Positions 1 through 25,993 of a DNA stretch of 25,993 nucleotides are shown piece after piece (the first letter of the stretch is position 1; every line of letters begins with the position of its first letter). This DNA is from a virus, in the IMG/VR virus record IMGVR_UViG_3300020477_000116, positions 1-25,993 of that record; one strand, given 5' to 3'. The position numbers and the translations under genes are program-made. The notes under the pieces were generated by a model, which ran no database searches, had not been told where the DNA came from, and saw only the letters and a program-made list of their open reading frames with translations.

Positions 1-719
1 TGTTTTTTATAGCTGACGGCATCGGCGCCCCAACACGCGCGGCAGTCGCCACAGTGGCCGGCCCGCTCGGGAGCGCTGCAGGCTTCGAAACCGGTTAGCG
101 GGTTGCCGGTGTGGACCCCCGACACCGCGAGACCCGGCGCCATGCGCCGCAGAGACTCAAAACCGGCCGGTGTTGGCTGATCTATGCGCGGTGTGGATAG
201 CCGGACCCGCAGGTTATCAGGCAGCGTGTTACCAGCTAGAAAGCGCTTCACCATGCCGGCTTCGCGAGTCGGAAGCCAAAACCGAACACCGGGAACGGCG
301 CGCGCGATATCGGCCAACACCGCTAGGTGTGCGACGCTCTGAATATCGCCGCTATCATGCCAACGAAAAAACCGGCCGTCGTCGCGGCCGATAGGCTTCC
401 CGCGTTCTAGGTTGCGCAGGGTCCGGCGCTCCCGGTGTTCTAGGATCGCGACCCAATCGGCAACCCACCGCGCGCGGGTCTCGGGTGTTTCTAGCGCTGC
501 CATAAGCGCTGCATAGCGGCGTTCCATTGCGTTCTTAGTGGACCGCCAGGAGTAGCTACCCTTTAGGGCGTAGCAGCCGTGGCATGTGCTACCGGGTTGC
601 TGCGCGAGTATCGCGCCCAATTGGCATCGGGTCGCGGGGATCGACCACGAATATCCCGGCATTTTACTAGGGTTAGATAGACCGCCAACGCGGGCGGCGA
701 GCGATTGCAGGGAAGCCAT
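1..719 (-). CDS. GP88-family phage protein (partial, C-terminus just off the left edge)
   Basis: Seen: an open frame of 239 codons runs from an ATG at 719 to the left edge without a stop. The ATG shares one base with the upstream gene's stop (TAATG), implying translational coupling. Cysteines sit at residues 32, 46, 49, 214, 223, 226 and 229, including TCHGCYALKGSY (45-56) and CGDCRACW (223-230). The block FRWHDSGD (118-125) and WLPTRE (148-153) follow. Known: this order (C..CYA, RWHDSGD, PTRE, CxxCxxCW, then an SYxK end) is the signature I associate with the mycobacteriophage 'gene product 88' family, whose function is unknown to me. Family members end close to the SYKK reached here, so only a few residues are probably missing. 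The seven cysteines suggest metal or Fe-S binding (inference). Leucine codon CTA is unusually common (about 9 of 21 by my count), unlike the structural genes. The family call is fairly firm; the biochemical role is open. Confidence 0.85.
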   Translation of the reverse strand, partial: MASLQSLAARVGGLSNPSKMPGYSWSIPATRCQLGAILAQQPGSTCHGCYALKGSYSWRSTKNAMERRYAALMAALETPETRARWVADWVAILEHRERRTLRNLERGKPIGRDDGRFFRWHDSGDIQSVAHLAVLADIARAVPGVRFWLPTREAGMVKRFLAGNTLPDNLRVRLSTPRIDQPTPAGFESLRRMAPGLAVSGVHTGNPLTGFEACSAPERAGHCGDCRACWGADAVSYKK

Positions 720-1270
720 TAGAGCTCCCTTCCATCTATTCGCTCGAATCGCGAAACGATATCCGCCGGCAGCGCGTCGTAGCAGGGGGCGCAAATAACC
801 GCAGCCCTAGTGGCGCTCTCAAGCAAAACGGCCCGGCGCGCGTCCATAATACGGCCGCAATCGGGTTGGGGGCAGGATATCGCGCGCCCTACCGCGCTAC
901 GCAGTAGCGCTCGATTGGCGGTGTGTTCTAGTTCCCCGGTTACCGATTGCGCAACCCTACGGCGCGCCGGGTTAGCCCGCGGCTTTTTGACGCGTACCTT
1001 TTTACCATCCAAAAGCCGAGCCGCATCGATAACCGACAACTCGACGGAAAAAGCCCGCACCCACTGCCGGCCTATCCGTTTTTCCATCCGTACTGTTCGG
1101 CGCTTGACGATTGCACGGCGCCGGCCGCTGGGGGCGGTGAAAATAGCGTTCACCGTCCCCGACTCGCGCCAACCCCGCACGCGGTAACCGCGGGTCACAT
1201 ACGCGCGCGCCTCCGCGACCGAACGCTCCCGAGCCCGTCGTATCGTTCTAGAGTTGTTTTCCAATGCCAT
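719..1270 (-). CDS. small basic protein with C-terminal zinc-ribbon-like cysteines
   Basis: A 183-residue minus-strand protein. The start is supported by a GGGAG Shine-Dalgarno sequence about 7 nt upstream of the ATG and by a promoter at 1309-1337. The first 120 residues are rich in Arg and Lys. The C-terminal third carries CPQPDC (C-x4-C) and, about 25 residues later, CAPC (C-x2-C), spacing consistent with a four-cysteine zinc ribbon. The gene ends inside TAATG, which starts the GP88-family gene, so the two are co-transcribed and probably coupled. I do not recognise a named family. A nucleic-acid-binding or regulatory role is possible from the basic charge and the zinc ribbon, but this is inference. 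Its reality is supported by the SD, the promoter and the junction with a recognisable gene; the plus-strand frames overlapping it lack these. Confidence 0.75.
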   Translation of the reverse strand: MALENNSRTIRRARERSVAEARAYVTRGYRVRGWRESGTVNAIFTAPSGRRRAIVKRRTVRMEKRIGRQWVRAFSVELSVIDAARLLDGKKVRVKKPRANPARRRVAQSVTGELEHTANRALLRSAVGRAISCPQPDCGRIMDARRAVLLESATRAAVICAPCYDALPADIVSRFERIDGREL

Positions 1271-14959: not shown

Positions 14960-15360
14960 GCTCTGGCTGGGAATCGAGCTACATCGGTATCCCTTACCAA
15001 AACCGAGGGCGAGACCGCGAAGGCATCGACTGCTACGGCCTTGTGGTTCTGGTTTTCAGAGAGGTATTCGGGGTCCGACTTACGTCTTTCGATGACTTCG
15101 ATATCGAGTCCCCCGACATCCATCAGGTCTGGGACGATTCGAGGAGATCGGAATGGGTGCGCGTGGCCGACGAGGACGTGAGGCCCGGCGACGTGGTGGA
15201 CGCGATTCTTATGCGAATCCCGCACTGCGGGATCGTGGTCGATACAAACAGAATGATTCACAGCCGCGTCGGCGTAGGCGTGCTGATCGAAAACTTTTCG
15301 AGGGGATACTTTTGTCGGAGAATTCGGGGTATTTACCGACACCGCGACATGGTGTCCTAG
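14956..15360 (+). CDS. NlpC/P60 peptidase of the tail tip, gpK-like
   Basis: A 134-residue peptidoglycan peptidase starting at an ATGA overlap with the gene before. A full catalytic set is visible: Cys26 in GIDCYGLVVLVFRE, His90 in PHCGIVVDT, and His102 in RMIHSRVG; VRPGDVVDAI supplies the usual 'GD' turn before the histidine strand. Lambda gpK has an extra N-terminal JAB/MPN metalloprotease domain that is absent here, so this is the minimal NlpC form. It would cut peptide cross-links in the cell wall during entry, or process a tip protein. The last 49 nt overlap the J gene if the TTG start is right. Confidence 0.93.
   Translation: MSSGWESSYIGIPYQNRGRDREGIDCYGLVVLVFREVFGVRLTSFDDFDIESPDIHQVWDDSRRSEWVRVADEDVRPGDVVDAILMRIPHCGIVVDTNRMIHSRVGVGVLIENFSRGYFCRRIRGIYRHRDMVS
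15300..15305 (+). promoter_or_regulatory. ribosome site deciding a TTG start for the J-like gene
   Basis: GAGGGG lies 6 nt before a TTG at 15312, inside the 3' end of the peptidase gene. The next in-frame ATG (15420) has only a GGGAG 3 nt away, too close for good initiation, so the TTG is preferred. Confidence 0.55.
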
Positions 15361-18300
15361 AAAAGCTCTATCCGTCTGACGGATTTGCGCCCGATGGATA
15401 CGTCCGCTTGCGGGAGCAAATGTCGATCTTCGACAAGTCGGACAGTCGTGAAATCGTTCTTCCGGTCGGCATGAGTCTTTCCGAGATGGCTCTTCAAGAG
15501 TTAGGCGGTCGTCTCAGTGATCGGCACGTCGTGACCGTTGGCGATCAGATCGTTTCGCGCGAACACTGGGAAACGACAGTCCCCGAATCGGGGCAACTCG
15601 TCCACTTCGTCGAGGCTCCAGGCGGAACCGAACTCATCATCGCCTCTCTGGTCGCCACACTGGTTAGTGTCTCACTAACGGTGGCAGGTGCGATCACGGG
15701 GAACAGCTATCTCATGATTGCAGGTGCAGCAGTCGGGCTACTCTCGATGGGGCTTGGCGCGTGGGGGGTAGGCGCCGCACCGCTCACGTCGGTGGTCTCC
15801 AACAAGGTTCTAGTCGCTGGCTCCGGTATCGCTCTCGGTGCGGCGAACGTCCTTGCCGGCTTTATTGCGCGTCCCCAGAGACAAAAAGGAAGAGACTCCG
15901 GTTTCAAGGCGAGCCCGCACCTCGTCGGCCTGCGAAACACCATCCGAAAGTTCGATCCGGTGCCGAAGGTTTTGGGAAAGGTGCGAGTGGCTCCGCCTTA
16001 CGGACAGCACCCCTACGCCCGCGTGATCGGCGAAGATAGATTTTTTTTCGGTCGCTTTATCGTGTCGAAGGGGCCCACGCTGATCTCCGACATTAAGATC
16101 GGCGAGACACCTCTCGAAAACTACTACGTGAGCGACGGCTATCAGTCGATGAACTTTCCACACTTAACGCACACCGGAAGTTCCCAACCCGACGCTGGAG
16201 ATTTTCAAGTCACAAACTTAAAAGTTTATCTGCGATCGGGCGATTACAAGTACGGGGTGATCTCGAGCCAAGGGTACCTCGCCACCGATTCAAAGATGTG
16301 GCTCTTCCCATATAAGACGACGAGAACCTCGGATGCCGAAGGGAATTTCACTGACCCGGGACAGCACCAGCCATGGACATGGGGAGAACGAGAATGGTGG
16401 GACGCCCGAAAGGTTCTAATTCCGACGACGCGCGGTGATTTCATCGCAAGGTGGGTAACCCAGGTATGCATGCCACCTCACCCAAGTGTCTCTGTGACTT
16501 CGACGATTGTCAGCGACACTTTTGTCCACGCAAATATGTATCGCACCACAGCATGGTTTCGAGACGACGTTCCCTCGTTTCGAGACCTTGAAGGTATGTC
16601 TGGCGTCGCGGGTGAGACATGGTTGCCAGTAACGGATGCGTCTGAATTCTTGGTCAACGACTGGATCGAGGTACCGATCAAAAACCAGGGCGACGTTCTG
16701 GAGTGGGATACAGCGCCGATCTCCGAACTCGACAGCACATGGAACACAAACGCAGGACGGTACCTCGGTGGGTATGTGACTGCGGTCGATACGGCCAGCT
16801 CTCCTAACCGAATACGGTTTCGGCCGAACGCAAAGTACAGCTCCGCTCCATATGCTGGGACGGTGCCTGCGAATGCGCCTATTACGATGTGTTGGGGGGG
16901 CGATAACGCACACAACGGAAACTACGCTTCCGATACAGACTCTGTCTCGTATCAGCATCGGGCTTATTTGTACGCGGGAACATCCTCAACAGCATCGAGC
17001 GTAAACCAGAGAAACAAGAGCGCGCACAGGTACTCTGAGTGGGATAGCGCACGACTGTATCGGTTCGACCGCGCCCTTGGGACGCCGGTCAAGTTCGAGT
17101 GGCACAAAAACTTAAAGTCGCTCAAAGAGGACGTGCTCTTTCAGCAGCGAACAGGCTTTCCTGAAGAACCACGTCTCAACATGATTCAGGAAAGCGTGTA
17201 CCTCGACGACAACGTCACGCCTTTGAACTCGTACACAGGTGGGTTTGAATCGGGGCTTCGAGCCGACCCTAAGATCCGCACCAGTGCCGAAAATGCCACA
17301 CGCATCCGCGTAAGCTTTTCGCTCGCCCCGATGTTCTATCAGGATAAACTGGACGGAGATAAACACGCGGCGGATAGCATTTTGCACTTCGCTATTCGCG
17401 AGACCCCCGAAGACTCATCGGGATCGACGCCGACATCGCCGGCTTTTGGGAACGACTTCCGATGTGAGGCCGGCGGACAAACGAGCGGATGGGTTACGGG
17501 AGCCAGGACAAAGGTTTTCCGCGGCGAAGGAATCTCGACTCCTACAATTGCCGTGAAAGTCTCGAACAAAAGCGACAGCGTGAAGAATGTCGCTTTTGAC
17601 ATCATCCCCGATTCGGCTTCGCCCAGCTCCGGTAAGCAGTACGACGTGAAAGTTGGAGTGGATGACTACGGGTACAAGGGCAAGTCCAATTTTTACCGCG
17701 ACATCAAGTGGATCGGGCTCGAGTCCACGCTGACTTCGGATGCGGTCATAGAGTCGGACTTGTCTGAACTTCAAATCCGGCTTAAAGAAAACTCGCTCGT
17801 CGAAGACCTTAACTGTGTCGCGCAGTCGCTCATCGCGTACTACGACGGATCGAGTTGGGTTGAGCCGGTATTCAATATGGACGAGGCGCAGCTCACGAAA
17901 TTCCAGGCTGCATCTGATAATCCTGCTTGGCAAATTGCGGACATTGTGCGCGGCAAAGCCTGCGCTAAGCCTGTGGACGATCGATACATCGATGGGGACT
18001 CGTTTCTGGAGTTCGCGAACTGGTGTGACAACCCTTACACCGGAGAAGCGGCGACGGTCGGAAACAACGTCGGGGACGGTTCGTCGAGCTATGCGGCAAA
18101 CGATACCGAGGTCGATTTAACCTGGGGAGAGTTCTGGGCAACGCGCGACGATCTCACGATGACGGAAAAGCTGCCGGCCACAAGCGCTGGCTACACATCC
18201 GAATACTGGGAGACGGTGCAAACGCCCACCGCAATCCCTTTGGGGGCGGCGACCGGCTCGAAGTTCCTGCACGCGACAATTCGCCGCCCGACCACAGAGG

Positions 18301-21300
18301 CATCGCACTGGGATACGTCTGACTGGAGTTTTCAGGCGGAAATCATTGCTTCCGACAGCTCAACCACGGGTGTCAAGACCGCCCCTTCGGTCGAACTAGT
18401 CGCAGGTGATTGGGTGACGCTCACTTGGGATTTCACTGACGAAACCGTCGCTACCACCGCCAACGACTGCAAGATCAGAATCTTCGGTTTGACCAACCAG
18501 CAACTTCTACCAACGATCTCTGAAATAGCGACTGGCTGGACTGGGCACACGACTGCTCAGATTTCTCGCGTCTGGATCGATGACAGCTCCACCGGCAACG
18601 GCACCTCCGTTTTCGACCACAGCTTTTTCCTGAAGTCCAATGTCCTCGACAATACCGCGAACGCGATTGTTCGATGGCGCCACGCTTTGATTCTACCCGG
18701 CGGCAGCAATTCGTATGAAGACGCGAATGTTTCACAGCTACCGTTTGATCCTCTTACGTTTTCGTACAACGGAATCAGACTTCACAACGTCAAGTTTACG
18801 CAATCCTCCGGAGGCGCTTTAACGGAAACGAAAAAGGCGGTTGGAACCCTGGAGTCAAGCGCGAGCTACGGTGCCTCCTACCGACTTTCCTTCACAAACG
18901 GCCTTGAGGGCGCGGTCGCGGCGGGAAGTACGGCCTACGAGTTGTTCCTGCCAATGCGCTGCAACGCGGTTGTGGACTACTCGACGACCGCTGCGGACAT
19001 CATGGAGCAAATCGCGGCGGTTGGATGGGGGAGCGTCCATTATCGCGACTCGAAGATCGGGATAACGATCGATAAGCCCAGGAAATCGCAGGCGGGTGTG
19101 GCGGACACTCCGGTTACGTTGATCACTCCGCGGAACACGAAGGCCGGTTCATTGCGTGGTACCAGGCAGTTCCCAGAGATCGCCCACGCGACAAGGGTAA
19201 ACTTTCAAACCGAAAAGGGTGTGACATCAGAAAGAATTGTCTACCGCCCAGGATACGCATCAGCCGCAGGGGATGGGGTAAAGAAGGCGACGATCTTCGA
19301 CCAGATGGACACCTGGGGCGTGGTCGATCCTGACCAGGCCTACCAGATGGCGAAATTCAACATCATCGCGCGAGACTACCGAAATGAAGTGATCGAGGTG
19401 GAACTCGACCTCGAAAACCTGTGGATCGAGCGCGGTGACCTCGTCGAGTTTTCTCACGACACCCCGATGATCGGAACGAGCTATGCCCGCCTGACAGCGG
19501 TTGCGCTCGATGGCTCCAACGAACTCGACACCATCACAACGGACGAACCGTCAACGCTGGAATTTGGCAAGGCGTATGGCGTGAGAATCCGATCCGCGGA
19601 CGGTCAATTCGTGACCACTCCGGTCACAAACCCGGCCACTTCTGGGAATCCGAGCGTTTCGACGAAAACGCTGACGGTTACCGGGTCGATCGCCGCAAGC
19701 TCTGCACCGGAAGCTGGTGATTTGGTCGCCTTCGGCGAGCTCGGCGTGGAAACCAACAGGATGGTCGTGATCGGAATCTCCCCCACCGACGATCTATCCG
19801 CGCGCATCACGATGGTGAGCGAAGCAGCGGACATGTGGCCGGCGCTTCGACAGGAAAACAGCATCCGGCCGACATACACGCCCGGCACCCAGATCACCGA
19901 CGACACGAAACCGGGCGAACCGACGGTACTCGGATGGATCTTCGGACCCGACTTCGTCGATATTGACCTCGCGACAAAATCGTTTGAGCACGTCCCGGCA
20001 GGCCAGATCGAAGGCGCCTGGCGAGACAACGCTGGAGGCAGTTGGAATCCGACAGTGACGGTGATGGCAGAGGCGACTACAACCATCCGTTTCGAGTGGC
20101 CGTACACCAGCAACCAATCAGGACGGGGAAAGCGCTGGTTCCAATTCCGCGCGATCCGATCGGATACGTTTTCAGCGTCGAACTGGACTGCCCTGGGACC
20201 GCTCGAGCCAGAGCTCGACGCAGCATTCATTCCTAATGACATATCCACCTCCCACCTAGAGGCAGCGGTGGAGGATGGTGATTGGGTACTGGATTGGGAG
20301 TTAAACATCGGGTCGGCCGCTCCCGACACTCTCACTGAGAGTGAGAATGTGAGCGCCAGCATCGACGTTCTGAGATCAGAAACTCCAGTACTGGAAGGAA
20401 GGCGTCCCGCCGAGCTCTCGCGATACGTCACAAACTTTCGCATCATCGTCATCGAGTGGCCTGGAAACGAAGGCCTCCACCTCGCACCCAACTACGACAA
20501 CCTTCCGATTTCTGCCCATCGACCAGAGGGGAAGTGGTTTCCAAGCGAGCGACGGAACGGATGGGCGCCTACCGACGACTTTGTCAACTCCTCCCACGTA
20601 AAAGTGAGGGAAGAATCGGTCGGTGGCGACGTGAGAAACTGGCGGTACACACACGAAATGAACGCGGCGGACCACGACGGAGTTGCGTCAAGGGGGGTTT
20701 TCCAGTTTAACGTCATCCCGGTTGTGGAGAAGGTTCCGAGCTTGGGTTGGGGACACGGTCGAAAATACGAAACCAAGTACGACCCGCCGCCGCCGACTCC
20801 GACCCTCAGCTACATCTCTCAGCCAATGGGCCGCGCCGCAGTCGATTTCGAGTTTGCGGGCCAGGTCAAAAATCCCGATGTTGAAGGCATTCTGATCTGG
20901 GCGACCGAGACGAGCGGCTTCAAGCCAATGGCCGACAACCTCGTCTATTCCGGGCCGGCGTCGGATGTTGTTTCGGTCATCGGCCTGGCTCCGACGCGAA
21001 CGTATTTCCGCTGGGCGACGTTCGACAAATTCTACCGAGCAGGCGACCCCCCCTCGACGCTGCACGTCCACCCTGACGAGGCGACGTTCTCGCCGGTCGC
21101 CGCGTCAGGAACGAGCGACATCGCGGTGGGGGATATGACGAATCTGTTCCCAGACCCGAGCTTCAACTACGTTGGCGGGTCGGCTTCGCTGAAAGATTTG
21201 TTCTCCGTTTACACCGAGGGGCGAGACCCTTACATGACGCACCCTTTGTCGCCCGACGGAGTTGGAGAAGAATCATGGGGCGTCGTCTCGATGATCGATC

Positions 21301-23486
21301 CCCTCGACAACCTTCCGGGGAACTTGATCTATCCAAAAGCCGGCACACAAATGCTCTCGTTCAACCCCGCAAAGTCGCTCGGTTTTGACGGCCACGGGAA
21401 ACGGTTGTTCCAATTTTTCTGGCAAGCCACTGGTAACTACGCCGACGGAACAGCTCCGACCGACTGGACAAAGTTCGAGGTCGGCGCAGAAATCGAGTGG
21501 CAGATCAATAACACAGGCCCCACCTACTACGGGACAATTTTCGACCTCTTGCTAGACGAGTCGGGAGCCACCCAGACACCCGGAGTAATCGAACCGGAGT
21601 TCGTCAACTGCTATGCGCACCAACCCGGCACCCACCCTATCGATAAAACCGAAGACGACGAGACGACGAAGACGATGATCCGGCTCCGATCCGACCCGAC
21701 AAATCACTTCGGTCGGGTCGCGTATAGCGTCAACATGACTGGCGGCTTTTCTGCCTCAAATGCTCCGCCGAATACGATGTTGCTATTCCCAAAGTTCGAG
21801 AGCCGGATGCCGCTTTTCGCTGACAAAGCGCAGAATGGTTTCGGCACCTCCGGCATTGCGACGGCGTTTTCGTGGTCTACATCGAACTCGATGCTTCCGG
21901 CGGACGCGCAGATTATGTCAGTCAGACCCGGCGACCAGTTCGAGTTGGATCTGTGGTTTAACCGAACGCGCTGGTTCTACGGTAGCGATGGCCGGATGTT
22001 CAACGCGCAGTTGGTTATGTACGACGGAGACGGCTACTACATCACAAAATACAGTGATGACGGCGGCTCGACATACAAGTCCACCGGAACCCAACACTCA
22101 ATGGAATGTCTCGTCGCGAGTGAAAGCCCCGCATCCGACGCTGTTGGTGGCTTCGACCTGGGGGTGCAGACCTGGGATACGTGGATCAGCATAACGCACG
22201 AATTCACAGTTCCTTCGCACGTCACCCGCGCAACTCGCACCGTCGCAGAACACGTCGAGCATGGCACAGACGGGGTGCCGACAACGGTCTCTCGGATGGG
22301 TCTAGCGATCGTACCCGAGGGCTCATCCCTTTCCAGTCGGCTGATTTCCGGGCCTCGCTGGGAACCAAGCGGTGGCGTTTTGAATACGGCGGCGGCGGCG
22401 GGCGACGGAGACAGTTCCAACAAATTGTTGGTTGACCAAGACGTTTCCAACACAGGAACTCTTCCGCTTAGAGTCGCTCCGAACGGGAGATACAACTACG
22501 ACGTGGAGATAGAACTCGACGACGGCAGCACGCACGGGGCACGGCTGATTTCGACGACTACGTTGAATAGTGACCCTTCCACGACCGAGGTCGAGATCGC
22601 CCCGGTTTTGTCGGGGGCGGCGGGTATCGGAAAACGCATCTACCACCGAAAAAACGGCGAAGCGGTACTTCTGTTTGACCAAGTCGAATTCAAGCCCGTT
22701 ACTCAATCGCGGGGCATCGCGACCTCGGCGGTGGTCGCGGACAAAATCGGCGCGTCGGCGGTGGTCGCGGAGAAGCTCGCCACCGGCTCCGTCGAGACGG
22801 CGAAGATCCTCGACGCCAACGTCACGACGCCAAAGATCGCGGCCGACTCGGTGACCACCAGGGCAACTGTGAAAACCTCCGCAGTGCAAACATCGGGAAC
22901 GATCAACTCCTATTTGCAGACACTGTCGGTGGAAAACGCTGACACAGCAACACGCCCGGTTGAGGTTACTTGGACCGGCGAGATTTACCGCCCGACCGAC
23001 TACTCAACCAATGCGGACTGGGCGCCCTACTTCTCTTGCTACACCTACTCAACCGAAACCACGCTTGCCGCAGCTTGGCCGAGCGGCACCAGCTCAATAC
23101 AGGTTTCATCCGTGACTGGCTTTGCGGTCGGCGACAAGGTCAGCGTCGGGCTGCACACGCTGAACCAAAACATCACACACGGATGGGAGATCCAGTCCAT
23201 CTACCAGAACATCATCACGTTTACGCAAAACAATTTCTGGGCGGCAACCTCCGGAGCCTTGGTTTTCAAAGAAGACGACATCGTCTTGAGTGACGAAAGG
23301 GTGGTACCGGCAGAGACCACAGGCACGGGGGCTTTGCAGTCCTTTTCTTTTTCAGCTCTTTCCACCTTGCCGTCGGAGACGACGAGCAAGATTCTGTTCA
23401 GCTTCAGGAACAACGGAAACAACTTCTGGCAACACGCCGCTATCGCCGCTGGAGCCCATTACGACGCGAAGGTCGTGAAGCGGTGA
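15312..23486 (+). CDS. giant gpJ-like tail tip / host specificity protein
   Basis: About 2724 residues from a TTG with GAGGGG 6 nt upstream; ATG 15420 (residue 37) is the alternative. Order: a beta-grasp, gpI-like part (about 45-106, with IVLPVGMSLSEM and ESGQLVHFVEAPGG); hydrophobic segments at about 108-187; the J-family block SPHLVGLRNTIRKFDPVPKV plus RVAPPYG (about 201-232) and ISDIKIGETPLENYY. A long beta-rich insert region follows. The hub core is near 1260-1510 (GTRQFPEIAHATRVNF, LDLENLWIERGDLVEF). Then come a fibronectin-III-like domain (about 1827-1927), a NLFPDPSF-led jelly-roll-like region, AVVADKIGASAVVAEKLA fibre repeats (about 2472-2517) and a terminal receptor region. Lambda J is 1132 residues, so this is more than twice as long. 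It carries the central spike that touches the host and probably includes a gpI-like domain as a fusion. Confidence 0.93.
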   Translation: MSENSGYLPTPRHGVLEKLYPSDGFAPDGYVRLREQMSIFDKSDSREIVLPVGMSLSEMALQELGGRLSDRHVVTVGDQIVSREHWETTVPESGQLVHFVEAPGGTELIIASLVATLVSVSLTVAGAITGNSYLMIAGAAVGLLSMGLGAWGVGAAPLTSVVSNKVLVAGSGIALGAANVLAGFIARPQRQKGRDSGFKASPHLVGLRNTIRKFDPVPKVLGKVRVAPPYGQHPYARVIGEDRFFFGRFIVSKGPTLISDIKIGETPLENYYVSDGYQSMNFPHLTHTGSSQPDAGDFQVTNLKVYLRSGDYKYGVISSQGYLATDSKMWLFPYKTTRTSDAEGNFTDPGQHQPWTWGEREWWDARKVLIPTTRGDFIARWVTQVCMPPHPSVSVTSTIVSDTFVHANMYRTTAWFRDDVPSFRDLEGMSGVAGETWLPVTDASEFLVNDWIEVPIKNQGDVLEWDTAPISELDSTWNTNAGRYLGGYVTAVDTASSPNRIRFRPNAKYSSAPYAGTVPANAPITMCWGGDNAHNGNYASDTDSVSYQHRAYLYAGTSSTASSVNQRNKSAHRYSEWDSARLYRFDRALGTPVKFEWHKNLKSLKEDVLFQQRTGFPEEPRLNMIQESVYLDDNVTPLNSYTGGFESGLRADPKIRTSAENATRIRVSFSLAPMFYQDKLDGDKHAADSILHFAIRETPEDSSGSTPTSPAFGNDFRCEAGGQTSGWVTGARTKVFRGEGISTPTIAVKVSNKSDSVKNVAFDIIPDSASPSSGKQYDVKVGVDDYGYKGKSNFYRDIKWIGLESTLTSDAVIESDLSELQIRLKENSLVEDLNCVAQSLIAYYDGSSWVEPVFNMDEAQLTKFQAASDNPAWQIADIVRGKACAKPVDDRYIDGDSFLEFANWCDNPYTGEAATVGNNVGDGSSSYAANDTEVDLTWGEFWATRDDLTMTEKLPATSAGYTSEYWETVQTPTAIPLGAATGSKFLHATIRRPTTEASHWDTSDWSFQAEIIASDSSTTGVKTAPSVELVAGDWVTLTWDFTDETVATTANDCKIRIFGLTNQQLLPTISEIATGWTGHTTAQISRVWIDDSSTGNGTSVFDHSFFLKSNVLDNTANAIVRWRHALILPGGSNSYEDANVSQLPFDPLTFSYNGIRLHNVKFTQSSGGALTETKKAVGTLESSASYGASYRLSFTNGLEGAVAAGSTAYELFLPMRCNAVVDYSTTAADIMEQIAAVGWGSVHYRDSKIGITIDKPRKSQAGVADTPVTLITPRNTKAGSLRGTRQFPEIAHATRVNFQTEKGVTSERIVYRPGYASAAGDGVKKATIFDQMDTWGVVDPDQAYQMAKFNIIARDYRNEVIEVELDLENLWIERGDLVEFSHDTPMIGTSYARLTAVALDGSNELDTITTDEPSTLEFGKAYGVRIRSADGQFVTTPVTNPATSGNPSVSTKTLTVTGSIAASSAPEAGDLVAFGELGVETNRMVVIGISPTDDLSARITMVSEAADMWPALRQENSIRPTYTPGTQITDDTKPGEPTVLGWIFGPDFVDIDLATKSFEHVPAGQIEGAWRDNAGGSWNPTVTVMAEATTTIRFEWPYTSNQSGRGKRWFQFRAIRSDTFSASNWTALGPLEPELDAAFIPNDISTSHLEAAVEDGDWVLDWELNIGSAAPDTLTESENVSASIDVLRSETPVLEGRRPAELSRYVTNFRIIVIEWPGNEGLHLAPNYDNLPISAHRPEGKWFPSERRNGWAPTDDFVNSSHVKVREESVGGDVRNWRYTHEMNAADHDGVASRGVFQFNVIPVVEKVPSLGWGHGRKYETKYDPPPPTPTLSYISQPMGRAAVDFEFAGQVKNPDVEGILIWATETSGFKPMADNLVYSGPASDVVSVIGLAPTRTYFRWATFDKFYRAGDPPSTLHVHPDEATFSPVAASGTSDIAVGDMTNLFPDPSFNYVGGSASLKDLFSVYTEGRDPYMTHPLSPDGVGEESWGVVSMIDPLDNLPGNLIYPKAGTQMLSFNPAKSLGFDGHGKRLFQFFWQATGNYADGTAPTDWTKFEVGAEIEWQINNTGPTYYGTIFDLLLDESGATQTPGVIEPEFVNCYAHQPGTHPIDKTEDDETTKTMIRLRSDPTNHFGRVAYSVNMTGGFSASNAPPNTMLLFPKFESRMPLFADKAQNGFGTSGIATAFSWSTSNSMLPADAQIMSVRPGDQFELDLWFNRTRWFYGSDGRMFNAQLVMYDGDGYYITKYSDDGGSTYKSTGTQHSMECLVASESPASDAVGGFDLGVQTWDTWISITHEFTVPSHVTRATRTVAEHVEHGTDGVPTTVSRMGLAIVPEGSSLSSRLISGPRWEPSGGVLNTAAAAGDGDSSNKLLVDQDVSNTGTLPLRVAPNGRYNYDVEIELDDGSTHGARLISTTTLNSDPSTTEVEIAPVLSGAAGIGKRIYHRKNGEAVLLFDQVEFKPVTQSRGIATSAVVADKIGASAVVAEKLATGSVETAKILDANVTTPKIAADSVTTRATVKTSAVQTSGTINSYLQTLSVENADTATRPVEVTWTGEIYRPTDYSTNADWAPYFSCYTYSTETTLAAAWPSGTSSIQVSSVTGFAVGDKVSVGLHTLNQNITHGWEIQSIYQNIITFTQNNFWAATSGALVFKEDDIVLSDERVVPAETTGTGALQSFSFSALSTLPSETTSKILFSFRNNGNNFWQHAAIAAGAHYDAKVVKR
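22725..22771 (+). repeat. 17-nt direct repeat with 30-nt period in the fibre segment of J
   Basis: TCGGCGGTGGTCGCGGA occurs exactly at 22725-22741 and again at 22755-22771. It encodes the repeated peptide SAVVA-(D/E)-K-(I/L) in a run of about 10-residue units (VVADKIGASA, VVAEKLATGS, VETAKILDAN, TTPKIAADSV). Such units are typical of trimeric fibre stalks. Confidence 0.85.
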
Positions 23487-23857
23487 TGAACGAGCTGGAA
23501 CTCGCGCGCCACCTTCGGCGCGGCCAACTCAACGAAAACTTCCGAGCCAAAATCAAACAAGGGCATCTGTTTTCCGGCTGGTTGATTTCCTTCGACGACC
23601 GCGCTGTCTCACGTATGGCAACCGTCCTCGCTGAACTCCGGGCCGGCGAGTCGGGCGCACATGGCGGGTTCTGGATCTGTCAGGACAACGAACGAATCGA
23701 ATTGAATGACTCGGAGGCGGTCTTTCTTCTGGCGTCCGCAATCACCGCCCGGCTCGAGCTCGACCAGGCGTATCTCGAAGCGAGAGACGAAATCAACGCA
23801 GCGACGACCGAAGAGGAAATCCTCGCCGTCGAAATTGAGATTGGAGGGGGGAGTTAG
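23486..23857 (+). CDS. DUF4376-like fibre-associated protein
   Basis: A 123-residue protein starting at TGATG, sharing a base with the J stop; a GTG one codon earlier is possible but less likely. Content: RAKIKQGHLFSGWLISFDDR, an RMATVLAELRAGESG helix, a WICQDNERIELNDSEAVFLL stretch and a final INAATTEEEILAVEIE. The pattern (D-R-x-R-hydrophobic helix, 'W..D..N...L...E...L', terminal 'INAATTxEEI') resembles DUF4376 domains found in phage tail-fibre or fibre-assembly proteins. The role is likely structural or in assembly of the receptor-binding proteins on either side. The family call is tentative, but the reading frame and the coupling to J are convincing. Confidence 0.7.
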   Translation: MNELELARHLRRGQLNENFRAKIKQGHLFSGWLISFDDRAVSRMATVLAELRAGESGAHGGFWICQDNERIELNDSEAVFLLASAITARLELDQAYLEARDEINAATTEEEILAVEIEIGGGS

Positions 23858-24868
23858 ATGGCACAGGTCTCCGGCGGGAGTGTTCGGGTTGAGAACGGCT
23901 CGAACACAATCCGACACATTTGGGACGTGCAGCTCGAAAACGGGGCGTCCGCCTTTGCTGAAGGTGACGTGATTACCTGGGACGGAGGCAGCGGCAGCAC
24001 AGGGGGTGACGGGGTCGTCGCATCGTTTACGGCCGGCACACTGAGGCTGTACTTCTACCGAACAGCCGGCGCAAATCCGACTGTCGGGGAAACGATCACC
24101 GACAGTACCACTACAAAAACTGGAGCCATCGCTAGCTTCTACCCAAACTCTCCACCAAACTGGAGCACCGACCCAGACATCACCTCGGGTGGAACGAAAA
24201 TGGTGGTGTTTGGATCGGACGCGACGGGGAACTACACGCTAGCCGCGTCCACCCAGCACACTTCAGACACGTTTGAGTTGACGACGAACTACGTCGGAAC
24301 GACTGGAACCATCGTCTCTTACGGCATCCACACTGATTTCACACCGAATCTCGGGCTTCCCACGGTCAACTACGGAGACGTAAACGCGGTTGCGCTAGTG
24401 ACGCGCGGCCTAGTCGAACTCGACCGGCGTGGGAAATTCCGAGGCGCGATGGTCACGATGACGGCGCAGCAGACAATCGCCGCCGCGACCGAAACGACGA
24501 TCGTGCCGGGCACGACCGCCTACGACACGGACACATGGGTCGCGACGGCAAACGCGGGGTTCTTCACAGTGCCGAGCGGCGTGGCGAAGGTGAGAGTTTC
24601 GTTCTCCGTCCGCGCCGTCGCGGACGTTGTCTCGACCTGGCGCTGCCATGTGCTGAAAAACGCGACGACGAGTTACGCCGGGTTTACGGAAACTAACTAT
24701 GCGGCGGTAGACGACGCCACTCCGATCACCGGAAACTCTCCGGCCATCGCAGTGGCGGCGGGCGACACGCTCAAATTGCAAACCCTGGTTTCGGCGGAAA
24801 CGATCGTCGCGCTCGACTCAGCGACGTGGTTTGCGATCGAAGCCGTCGAGCTCACAGCGGCGAGCTAG
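23858..24868 (+). CDS. putative tail fibre / receptor-binding protein with C-terminal jelly-roll-like domain
   Basis: A 336-residue protein whose ATG directly follows the previous stop, with a GGAGGGGGGAG ribosome site. Residues about 1-100 are beta-rich with AFAEGDVITWDGGSGST and ASFTAGTLRLYFYRTAG. The middle (about 100-180) is Thr/Ser/Gly-rich. The C-terminal 140 residues have the feel of a C1q/TNF-like jelly roll: GFFTVPSGVAKVRVSFSVRA, WRCHVLKNATTSYAGF, AIAVAAGDTLKLQTLV and WFAIEAVEL form alternating strands in the right order. Such domains commonly end phage receptor-binding proteins and make trimers. No catalytic motif is seen. Lies between two small cassette genes after J, so probably on the virion surface. 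Confidence 0.7.
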   Translation: MAQVSGGSVRVENGSNTIRHIWDVQLENGASAFAEGDVITWDGGSGSTGGDGVVASFTAGTLRLYFYRTAGANPTVGETITDSTTTKTGAIASFYPNSPPNWSTDPDITSGGTKMVVFGSDATGNYTLAASTQHTSDTFELTTNYVGTTGTIVSYGIHTDFTPNLGLPTVNYGDVNAVALVTRGLVELDRRGKFRGAMVTMTAQQTIAAATETTIVPGTTAYDTDTWVATANAGFFTVPSGVAKVRVSFSVRAVADVVSTWRCHVLKNATTSYAGFTETNYAAVDDATPITGNSPAIAVAAGDTLKLQTLVSAETIVALDSATWFAIEAVELTAAS

Positions 24869-24877
24869 GAGAACCCA

Positions 24878-25225
24878 ATGGCCGAGGTCGAATTGACGGT
24901 GACGAAATTCGGGGAAACAGTCCAGTGGGTGCAGGCGAACGCGGACGGACACGCCTACACGAATGACGGGTTGACGATCTTGATGGTCGATAACACTTCC
25001 GGTGGGGCGTTCACCGTTCAGCACAATGAGCAGAGACAGTGTGACTTTGGGCACGCCACCGTCAATGACACCGACCCGTGCCCTGACGGCGGGATCACCC
25101 GCGTGTTCCGAGCGCAGAACATCGTGCGTTTTAACGACTCAGCGGGAAAGACGCACATCGAATTCACGACCGCAGTTCCAGGCGACGCGACTCTCCGGGT
25201 CGCCGTCGTGTCATATACCTCTTAG
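24878..25225 (+). CDS. small putative virion protein of unknown family
   Basis: A 115-residue all-beta protein with AGGAGA (24867-24872) 5 nt before the ATG. Motifs include DGHAYTNDGLTILMVDNTSG (about 27-46), a QRQCDFGH segment, an 'IVRFNDSAGKTHIEFT' stretch and a closing ATLRVAVVSYTS strand. I recall similar short proteins ('..NDG.. LxVxNG..', '..xFND..G..') in tail regions of other phages, often labelled structural, but can give no firm name. The compact beta-sandwich look suggests a decoration or fibre-accessory protein. Cys and Pro content (CPDGG) is ordinary. Confidence 0.6.
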   Translation: MAEVELTVTKFGETVQWVQANADGHAYTNDGLTILMVDNTSGGAFTVQHNEQRQCDFGHATVNDTDPCPDGGITRVFRAQNIVRFNDSAGKTHIEFTTAVPGDATLRVAVVSYTS

Positions 25226-25234
25226 GAGTCAAAC

Positions 25235-25993
25235 ATGAAACGCGCCCTCCTCGTCGCAGTCCTCGTCGCCTTTTTGACCGGCGGCTATAGCTTTGCCCAG
25301 ACGGAATTCCAGCCCAGCGTGAGTTCAACCGCAAAAATCGCGGACGAGGGGACTACGGTCACCCGCCGCGACGTGCTGAATTTCACGGGCGTCGAGATCA
25401 CTTGCACGGACGACGCCGGAAACGAGCGGACGAACTGCGCCCTCGACACCGGCCTCGCGACCGGCACCTCGGGGACGATCCCGAAGTTCGGAAGCTCCAA
25501 CACCCTCGTCGATTCAATCGTAACCGAGAGCGGGACGACCGCGACGGTGGCCGGATCGGTGAACACGACCGGCGGCGTTGACGTACAGGGCGCAGCGGGG
25601 ATCACACTCTCGAACGACGAGACGATCACCAACGCTGTGGACGGCACGGTGAAGGTTTTGGGGATCTTGAGCGTCCGCGATTCGAGCGACCTCAACGCAA
25701 CGGGCGGCGGAGTTGTTCACGTTGGCAGCAGCGACACCGACTACCTGGCCCTCGACCCGAACGAGATACAAGCGATGACCGGCGGCGCGGCGGGCGAGCT
25801 GCATATCAATACCCACGGAGGCGGGACAAACGTCCACAGCGTCACCGACGGGGTGTTCTCGGTGAATACGAGCGACCTCTACGTGGAGGCGCTGGGCGAC
25901 ATTGGCGCGGGGACGACCGACCCCGACGGAAAATTCCACATCTGGGCGGGCAGCTCCGGCGGTAGCCCGAGCGGCGACTTCATCGTCGAAGAC
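25235..25993 (+). CDS. signal-peptide-bearing tail fibre-like protein (partial, 3' end missing)
   Basis: An open frame of 253 codons runs to the right edge with no stop. AGGAG (25224-25228) lies 6 nt before the ATG. Residues 1-23 are a classic Sec signal peptide: MKR, then ALLVAVLVAFLTGG, then SFA before Q (probable cleavage). The next part has a DEGTTVTRRDVLNFTG block and two cysteines (ITCTDDAGNERTNC) that could form a disulfide. Then come Gly/Thr-rich beta repeats (VNTTGGVDVQGAAGITLSND, DGTVKVLGILSVRD) and, at the edge, FHIWAGSSGG followed by DFIVED. I associate this 'lHIWaGSxG..(L)VVE(D/N)' block with phage fibre proteins that end in an S74-type self-cleaving chaperone, but the C-terminus is outside the window. 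A secreted or lipoprotein-like host-modifying protein is the alternative. Confidence 0.75.
   Translation, partial: MKRALLVAVLVAFLTGGYSFAQTEFQPSVSSTAKIADEGTTVTRRDVLNFTGVEITCTDDAGNERTNCALDTGLATGTSGTIPKFGSSNTLVDSIVTESGTTATVAGSVNTTGGVDVQGAAGITLSNDETITNAVDGTVKVLGILSVRDSSDLNATGGGVVHVGSSDTDYLALDPNEIQAMTGGAAGELHINTHGGGTNVHSVTDGVFSVNTSDLYVEALGDIGAGTTDPDGKFHIWAGSSGGSPSGDFIVED

What the first reader, a model, noticed from the sequence alone, without database searches (positions are those of the whole stretch)
25235..25993. Tail-fibre-like protein with a Sec signal peptide
Virion fibres are normally assembled in the cytoplasm. Here the protein begins with a textbook export signal (positive start, 14-residue hydrophobic core, S-F-A cleavage site) fused to fibre-type beta repeats, and a nearby Cys pair is compatible with an oxidising compartment. 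It may be a fibre-like protein displayed on the infected cell, a decoy or superinfection factor, or a fibre exported and then picked up by phage. The signal is directly seen; the function is inference.
Basis: partly seen in the sequence, partly recalled or inferred. Interest (0 to 1): 0.65.

Follow-up and report, generated by a model that had tools for sequence, protein, structure and literature searches.

The report
Phage fibre protein with export signal
A marine tailed phage encodes, just after its tail-tip gene, a fibre-like protein that starts with a secretion signal, and distant phages carry similar genes, so some phages probably send fibre-type proteins out of the infected cell instead of only building them into virus particles.

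Summary
The ORF at 25235 has one credible start (in-frame TAG three codons upstream, AGGAG six bases before the ATG) and begins MKRALLVAVLVAFLTGGYSFA|QT; 0.4% of shuffles pass the same signal rule. The window is a whole IMG/VR record and the gene is cut by its end; a 99.9% identical contig in a Chloroflexi MAG confirms it and adds 55 residues of fibre repeat. The phage is lambda-like; the gene lies in the lom/stf interval after J.

The signal is unusual for a phage fibre: 1 of 70 S74-type phage fibres passes the same rule, but 8 of 29 viral proteins sharing this protein's NDETITN repeat do. Several of these lie in head or tail gene modules; other exported proteins match the S74 or Collar domain.

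Best reading: a Sec-exported, disulfide-stabilised distal-fibre module lacking the usual virion-attachment half, acting at the host surface. Docking onto virions after lysis is not excluded. Secreted S74 proteins are common in Chloroflexota, so this is a new variant of a known kind.

The parts
25223..25234 (+). Upstream stop TAG overlapping the Shine-Dalgarno AGGAG (25224-25228), 6 nt before the ATG
   Evidence: sequence, gene-start table
25235..25993 (+). Fibre-like protein with N-terminal Sec signal, truncated by the contig end (continues at least 55 residues in L046)
25235..25297 (+). Sec signal peptide, residues 1-21, predicted cleavage SFA|QT
25331..25453 (+). Small beta domain 'DEGT..LNFTG..ITCTDDAGNERTNCAL' (residues ~33-73) with Cys pair C57/C68 on opposite strands of a predicted hairpin
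   Evidence: strands 54-58 and 67-71 in a low-confidence model
25538..25669 (+). Fibre repeat 'DVQGAAGITLSNDETITNAVDG'
25898..25993 (+). Start of the 'GAGTTDPDGKFHIW...' fibre repeat, resembling GIGT.SP..LHV repeats of S74 fibres; continues in L046 as RIDFGD..GRIEYHHSADRMDF
24878..25225 (+). 115-aa protein directly upstream, weak tail-protein match, no signal
23858..24868 (+). 336-aa protein without signal; possible receptor-binding or tail-tip protein (inference)
23483..23857 (+). 124-aa DUF4376 protein, weak tail-fibre match
15357..23486 (+). Lambda J-like central tail fibre / tail tip protein
   Evidence: PHROG 31, E 3e-46

Best explanation
A late gene of a lambda-like siphophage encodes a fibre-type protein that is exported by the host Sec pathway, cleaved after A21, and folds outside the cytoplasm, where C57 and C68 form a hairpin disulfide. 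It corresponds to the distal half of a fibre: signal, small beta domain, repeats and probably a C-terminal chaperone, without the long N-terminal half that ties cytosolic fibres to the virion. It most likely acts at the surface of the infected (or lysogenic) cell or as a soluble decoy, for example masking the phage's own receptor so that progeny and competitors do not adsorb to the dying cell. Shown: start, signal-like N-terminus, gene position, repeat homology, Cys-pair comparison. Inferred: export itself, disulfide, trimer, receptor masking.
For: Signal and start; same gene in a second assembly. Only 1 of 70 phage S74-type fibres passes the same rule, against 8 of 29 viral proteins with this protein's repeat (Fisher p 2e-4), so the signal is not a usual fibre N-terminus. 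The DEGT domain starts at residue 29-34 in the two exported phage proteins, both with the Cys pair, and at residue 284 or later in eight cytosolic proteins with a defined start (a ninth, L127, is 5' open), none with the pair (Fisher p 0.018). In nine exported fibres 20 of 31 Cys have a partner 3-16 residues away against 2.5 expected; in 84 cytosolic fibres 19 of 175 against 15.3 (p 2e-6). Exported proteins in phage-like records match real tail families: S74 in L125, Collar in L032. The nearest isolated relatives by terminase include CRP-823, whose S74 fibre directly after the J-like gene has no signal.
Against: No SignalP and no experiment. The signal rule is home-made. The Cys-pair range was chosen after seeing the data, L036 and L038 are related, and 20 other exported ORFs show no such enrichment. 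In L016, L030, L036 and L038 the exported gene follows the capsid gene directly, which rather suggests a virion part. The C-terminus is unknown, so receptor binding is not shown.
Confidence: 0.5

Rival explanations
1. Exported, folded in the periplasm or outside, and then docked onto finished virions at or after lysis as an accessory tail or head fibre.
For: The gene sits in the structural cluster nine bases after a structural-type gene. In other phages the exported fibre gene follows the major head protein directly: L016 and L030 (PHROG 1005), L036 (PHROG 10), and L125 a few genes later.
Against: Only about 12 residues separate the cleavage site from the first fibre domain, leaving little room for an N-terminal docking domain; no precedent was found.
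Confidence: 0.25
2. The N-terminal hydrophobic segment is not cleaved; it anchors a cytosolically made fibre to the inner membrane or within the virion.
For: Some relatives have weak cleavage sites (L016, VQG|Q) or an internal hydrophobic segment (L012/L032, 816-aa frame).
Against: SFA|QT is a standard site; the uninterrupted core is only about 11 residues; the Cys pair fits an oxidising place.
Confidence: 0.1
3. A cargo gene for a host-surface protein of cellular origin (lysogenic-conversion adhesin), like the secreted S74 proteins of Chloroflexota.
For: 13 of 18 S74 proteins with a defined start in Chloroflexota genomes pass the signal rule, and the second copy of this phage lies in a Chloroflexi MAG.
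Against: No direct homology was tested between this protein and those; the known part has no S74 domain; the MAG binning may be wrong and the best terminase matches are proteobacterial phages.
Confidence: 0.12
4. Amber readthrough fuses the fibre to the 115-aa upstream protein, making the hydrophobic stretch internal.
For: ORFs 23483, 23858, 24878 and 25235 are all in one frame, separated only by TAG and at most three codons.
Against: Each has its own start codon (the last two with a strong ribosome site), and TAGGAG plus 6 nt before ATG is automatically in frame; the portal, terminase, tape-measure and J genes (about 4,870 codons) hold no internal TAG.
Confidence: 0.03

Closest known systems
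Phage tail fibres with a C-terminal S74 (endosialidase chaperone) domain, e.g. Roseobacter phage CRP-823 fibre
   Same: Same kind of GIGTTSP..LHV / RI.FGD...G.I.Y..S..M.F repeats; gene after the J-like gene
   Different: CRP-823 has a normal cytosolic fibre N-terminus and no signal; S74 is not seen here because the gene is cut
Secreted S74-domain proteins of Chloroflexota
   Same: Signal peptide on a protein of the S74 class (13 of 18 with a defined start)
   Different: Cellular genomes, not a phage tail module; no sequence relationship to this protein was tested
Phage lambda Lom (from general knowledge)
   Same: Exported protein encoded just downstream of J in a lambda-like genome
   Different: Lom is an outer-membrane barrel; this is a fibre-repeat protein, and no family link was found
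Prophage-encoded surface adhesins of the Eib / trimeric autotransporter kind (from general knowledge)
   Same: Exported fibrous surface protein encoded by a phage
   Different: No autotransporter anchor seen; the C-terminus is unknown; not searched for with a dedicated model

Membership tests
Sec/SPase I exported proteins | Positive n-region, hydrophobic core, small-x-small cleavage site | tested here: met
   KR / ALLVAVLVAFL / SFA|QT; 0.37% of shuffles pass
Sec/SPase I exported proteins | Observed translocation and cleavage | not testable with these tools
   needs a reporter fusion or N-terminal proteomics
Lipoproteins (SPase II) | Lipobox Cys at the end of the core | tested here: not met
   no Cys before residue 57; LPAM_1 E 0.43, below cut-off
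S74 (endosialidase-chaperone) phage fibres | S74 domain at the C-terminus | tested here: inconclusive
   no match in the 253 known residues; the gene is cut, and no S74 was found elsewhere in the MAG
S74 (endosialidase-chaperone) phage fibres | Fibre repeats before the S74 domain | tested here: met
   repeat matches to phage fibre-type proteins, mostly weak
Virion tail fibre | Cytosolic N-terminus that attaches to the tail | tested here: not met
   signal at the N-terminus, and the shared beta domain at residue 34 instead of 284-666
Virion tail fibre | Presence in the particle | not testable with these tools
   needs virion proteomics
Lambda Lom | Homology to the Lom barrel family | tested here: not met
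   no Lom-type match among Pfam and PHROG families

The most novel reading that the evidence does not exclude
Several lineages of uncultivated tailed phages have independently moved fibre modules behind a Sec signal, forming a class of exported, disulfide-stabilised phage fibres encoded inside the head or tail gene cluster that either block receptors or are loaded onto virions outside the cytoplasm.
Probability: 0.35. Interest if true: 0.75.

Novelty: new variant of a known kind. Interest (0 to 1): 0.5.

Why it matters
Textbook tailed-phage fibres are made and assembled in the cytoplasm. If phages routinely export fibre-type proteins, then 'tail fibre' annotations in phage genomes can mark receptor-masking or surface-display factors rather than host-range determinants, and structural proteomics that looks only at purified virions will miss them. 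The set of exported fibres listed here (window, L016, L018, L023, L027, L030, L032, L036, L038, L125, L135) makes the question testable.

Tried and rejected
Searching viral contigs with the 115-aa neighbour, the J core and the minor tail protein gave no relatives, so no close homologue exists to compare starts. The last 28 bases of the MAG contig find no continuation, and S74 is absent from that MAG, so the 3' end stays unknown. PDB sequence matches are weak and not fibre-like. The AlphaFold model without an alignment is poor (mean pLDDT 41) and was not fold-searched. A 15-column cleavage-site matrix built from 23 remembered E. coli signals is too small to rank sites. A regular-expression hunt for the hairpin found nothing further. 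Cys-pair enrichment does not extend to the other exported ORFs. TAG recoding was considered and rejected. Chimeric assembly was rejected because a second assembly agrees. Literature searches found no description of exported tail fibres; the library is open access only.

Full report
What is there. The window is a complete IMG/VR record of 25,993 bases. Its genes follow phage lambda's order: small and large terminase, portal, S49-type head protease, lambda-D-like decoration protein, capsid protein E, tail terminator, lambda-like tail tube, tape measure, minor tail proteins and a J-like tail tip. After J come a 124-aa DUF4376 protein, a 336-aa protein, a 115-aa protein and the gene in question, cut by the record's end. 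A contig of a Chloroflexi MAG, PBAZ01000028.1, is 99.9% identical over window 15538-25993 and runs 167 bases further. It confirms the gene, rules out an assembly joint, and adds 55 residues (DDAYVNLTLSSPSDKTGRIDFGDVLSNNAGRIEYHHSADRMDF...), resembling the repeats of S74 fibres.

The start and the signal. An in-frame TAG lies three codons before the ATG, and AGGAG sits six bases before it, the same TAGGAG arrangement as at the previous gene. A GTG at residue 29 is a possible later start but has no comparable ribosome site. The first 21 residues fit a Sec signal: KR, eleven hydrophobic residues, GGYSFA|Q. The rule used accepts 21 of 23 known E. coli signals and 74 of 20,000 shuffles of this protein. 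SignalP was not available.

Is it unusual? Phage fibres were collected by two searches and judged by a slightly relaxed form of the rule. Of 70 S74-type fibres with a defined start, one passes; of 30 proteins sharing this protein's NDETITN repeat, nine do, eight of them in viral records. The rule passes 16 of 414 predicted ORFs of 300 residues or more across the loci, and many of those are the same fibres. So the signal is rare on ordinary fibres and recurrent in this group.

The relatives. Several exported proteins lie in phage gene clusters. L016 and L030 encode theirs directly after a PHROG 1005 major head protein, L036 after a PHROG 10 major head protein (L038 looks the same), and L125 a few genes after a major head protein. 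L125's is a full fibre with an S74 domain (E 5e-17), and L032 has a further exported protein with the phage Collar domain (E 2e-21). L027 and L026 carry runs of consecutive exported proteins, one matching a beta-helix model. The metagenomic siphovirus MW202637 carries several, including a lipoprotein-like one that matches a tail-protein family.

The Cys pair. Residues 33-73 form a small domain found in other phage tail proteins. In MW202637 it follows a signal peptide and keeps both Cys (GVSCTDSGGKTVCTI). In nine cytosolic proteins neither Cys is present, and where the start is defined the domain lies at residue 284 or beyond. More generally, in nine exported fibres 20 of 31 mature Cys have a partner 3-16 residues away against 2.5 expected; in 84 cytosolic fibres 19 of 175 against 15.3. 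This test is post hoc, and 20 other exported ORFs do not show it, so it is support, not proof.

Mechanism. Export is the best-supported step (my estimate 0.85). What follows is inference. The exported protein lacks the long N-terminal half that cytosolic fibres have before the same domain, and only about 12 residues precede it after cleavage. That argues against a normal tail attachment and for a surface or soluble role such as receptor masking. The capsid-adjacent genes in other phages keep virion docking alive.

Comparison with the known. In Chloroflexota genomes 13 of 18 S74 proteins with a defined start carry a signal, so 'signal plus S74-class protein' is a known cellular design. In lambda the exported Lom is encoded just after J (general knowledge). 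What is new is a phage fibre-repeat protein of this design inside the tail module and its recurrence in other phages. No description was found in the open-access library. I rate it a new variant of a known kind.

Noticed in passing
window 23483-25993: Four consecutive ORFs (124, 336, 115 and 253+ aa) share one reading frame and are separated only by TAG stops; readthrough would fuse them, though each has its own start codon.
   Followed up: partly
L027:5129-16082 and L026:4674-8799: Uncultivated phage-like contigs with three to five consecutive signal-bearing fibre- or beta-helix-type proteins.
   Followed up: partly
L135:2720-8049 (MW202637.1): Cluster of exported proteins late in the genome, including a lipoprotein-like 489-aa protein matching a phage tail family (PHROG 5939).
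   Followed up: partly
L032:9433-10368: Phage tail-collar protein (Pfam Collar) with a Sec-like N-terminus, in a contig with a PHROG 1357 major head protein.
   Followed up: partly
L046 (PBAZ01000028.1): A contig filed in a Chloroflexi MAG is this phage; either a host clue or a binning error.
   Followed up: no
window 3-794, minus strand: Gene product 88 family protein (PF17338) at the record's left end.
   Followed up: no
L047 (Marinimicrobia MAG): Run of large signal-bearing proteins, one with the NDETITN repeat, in a cellular MAG contig.
   Followed up: no
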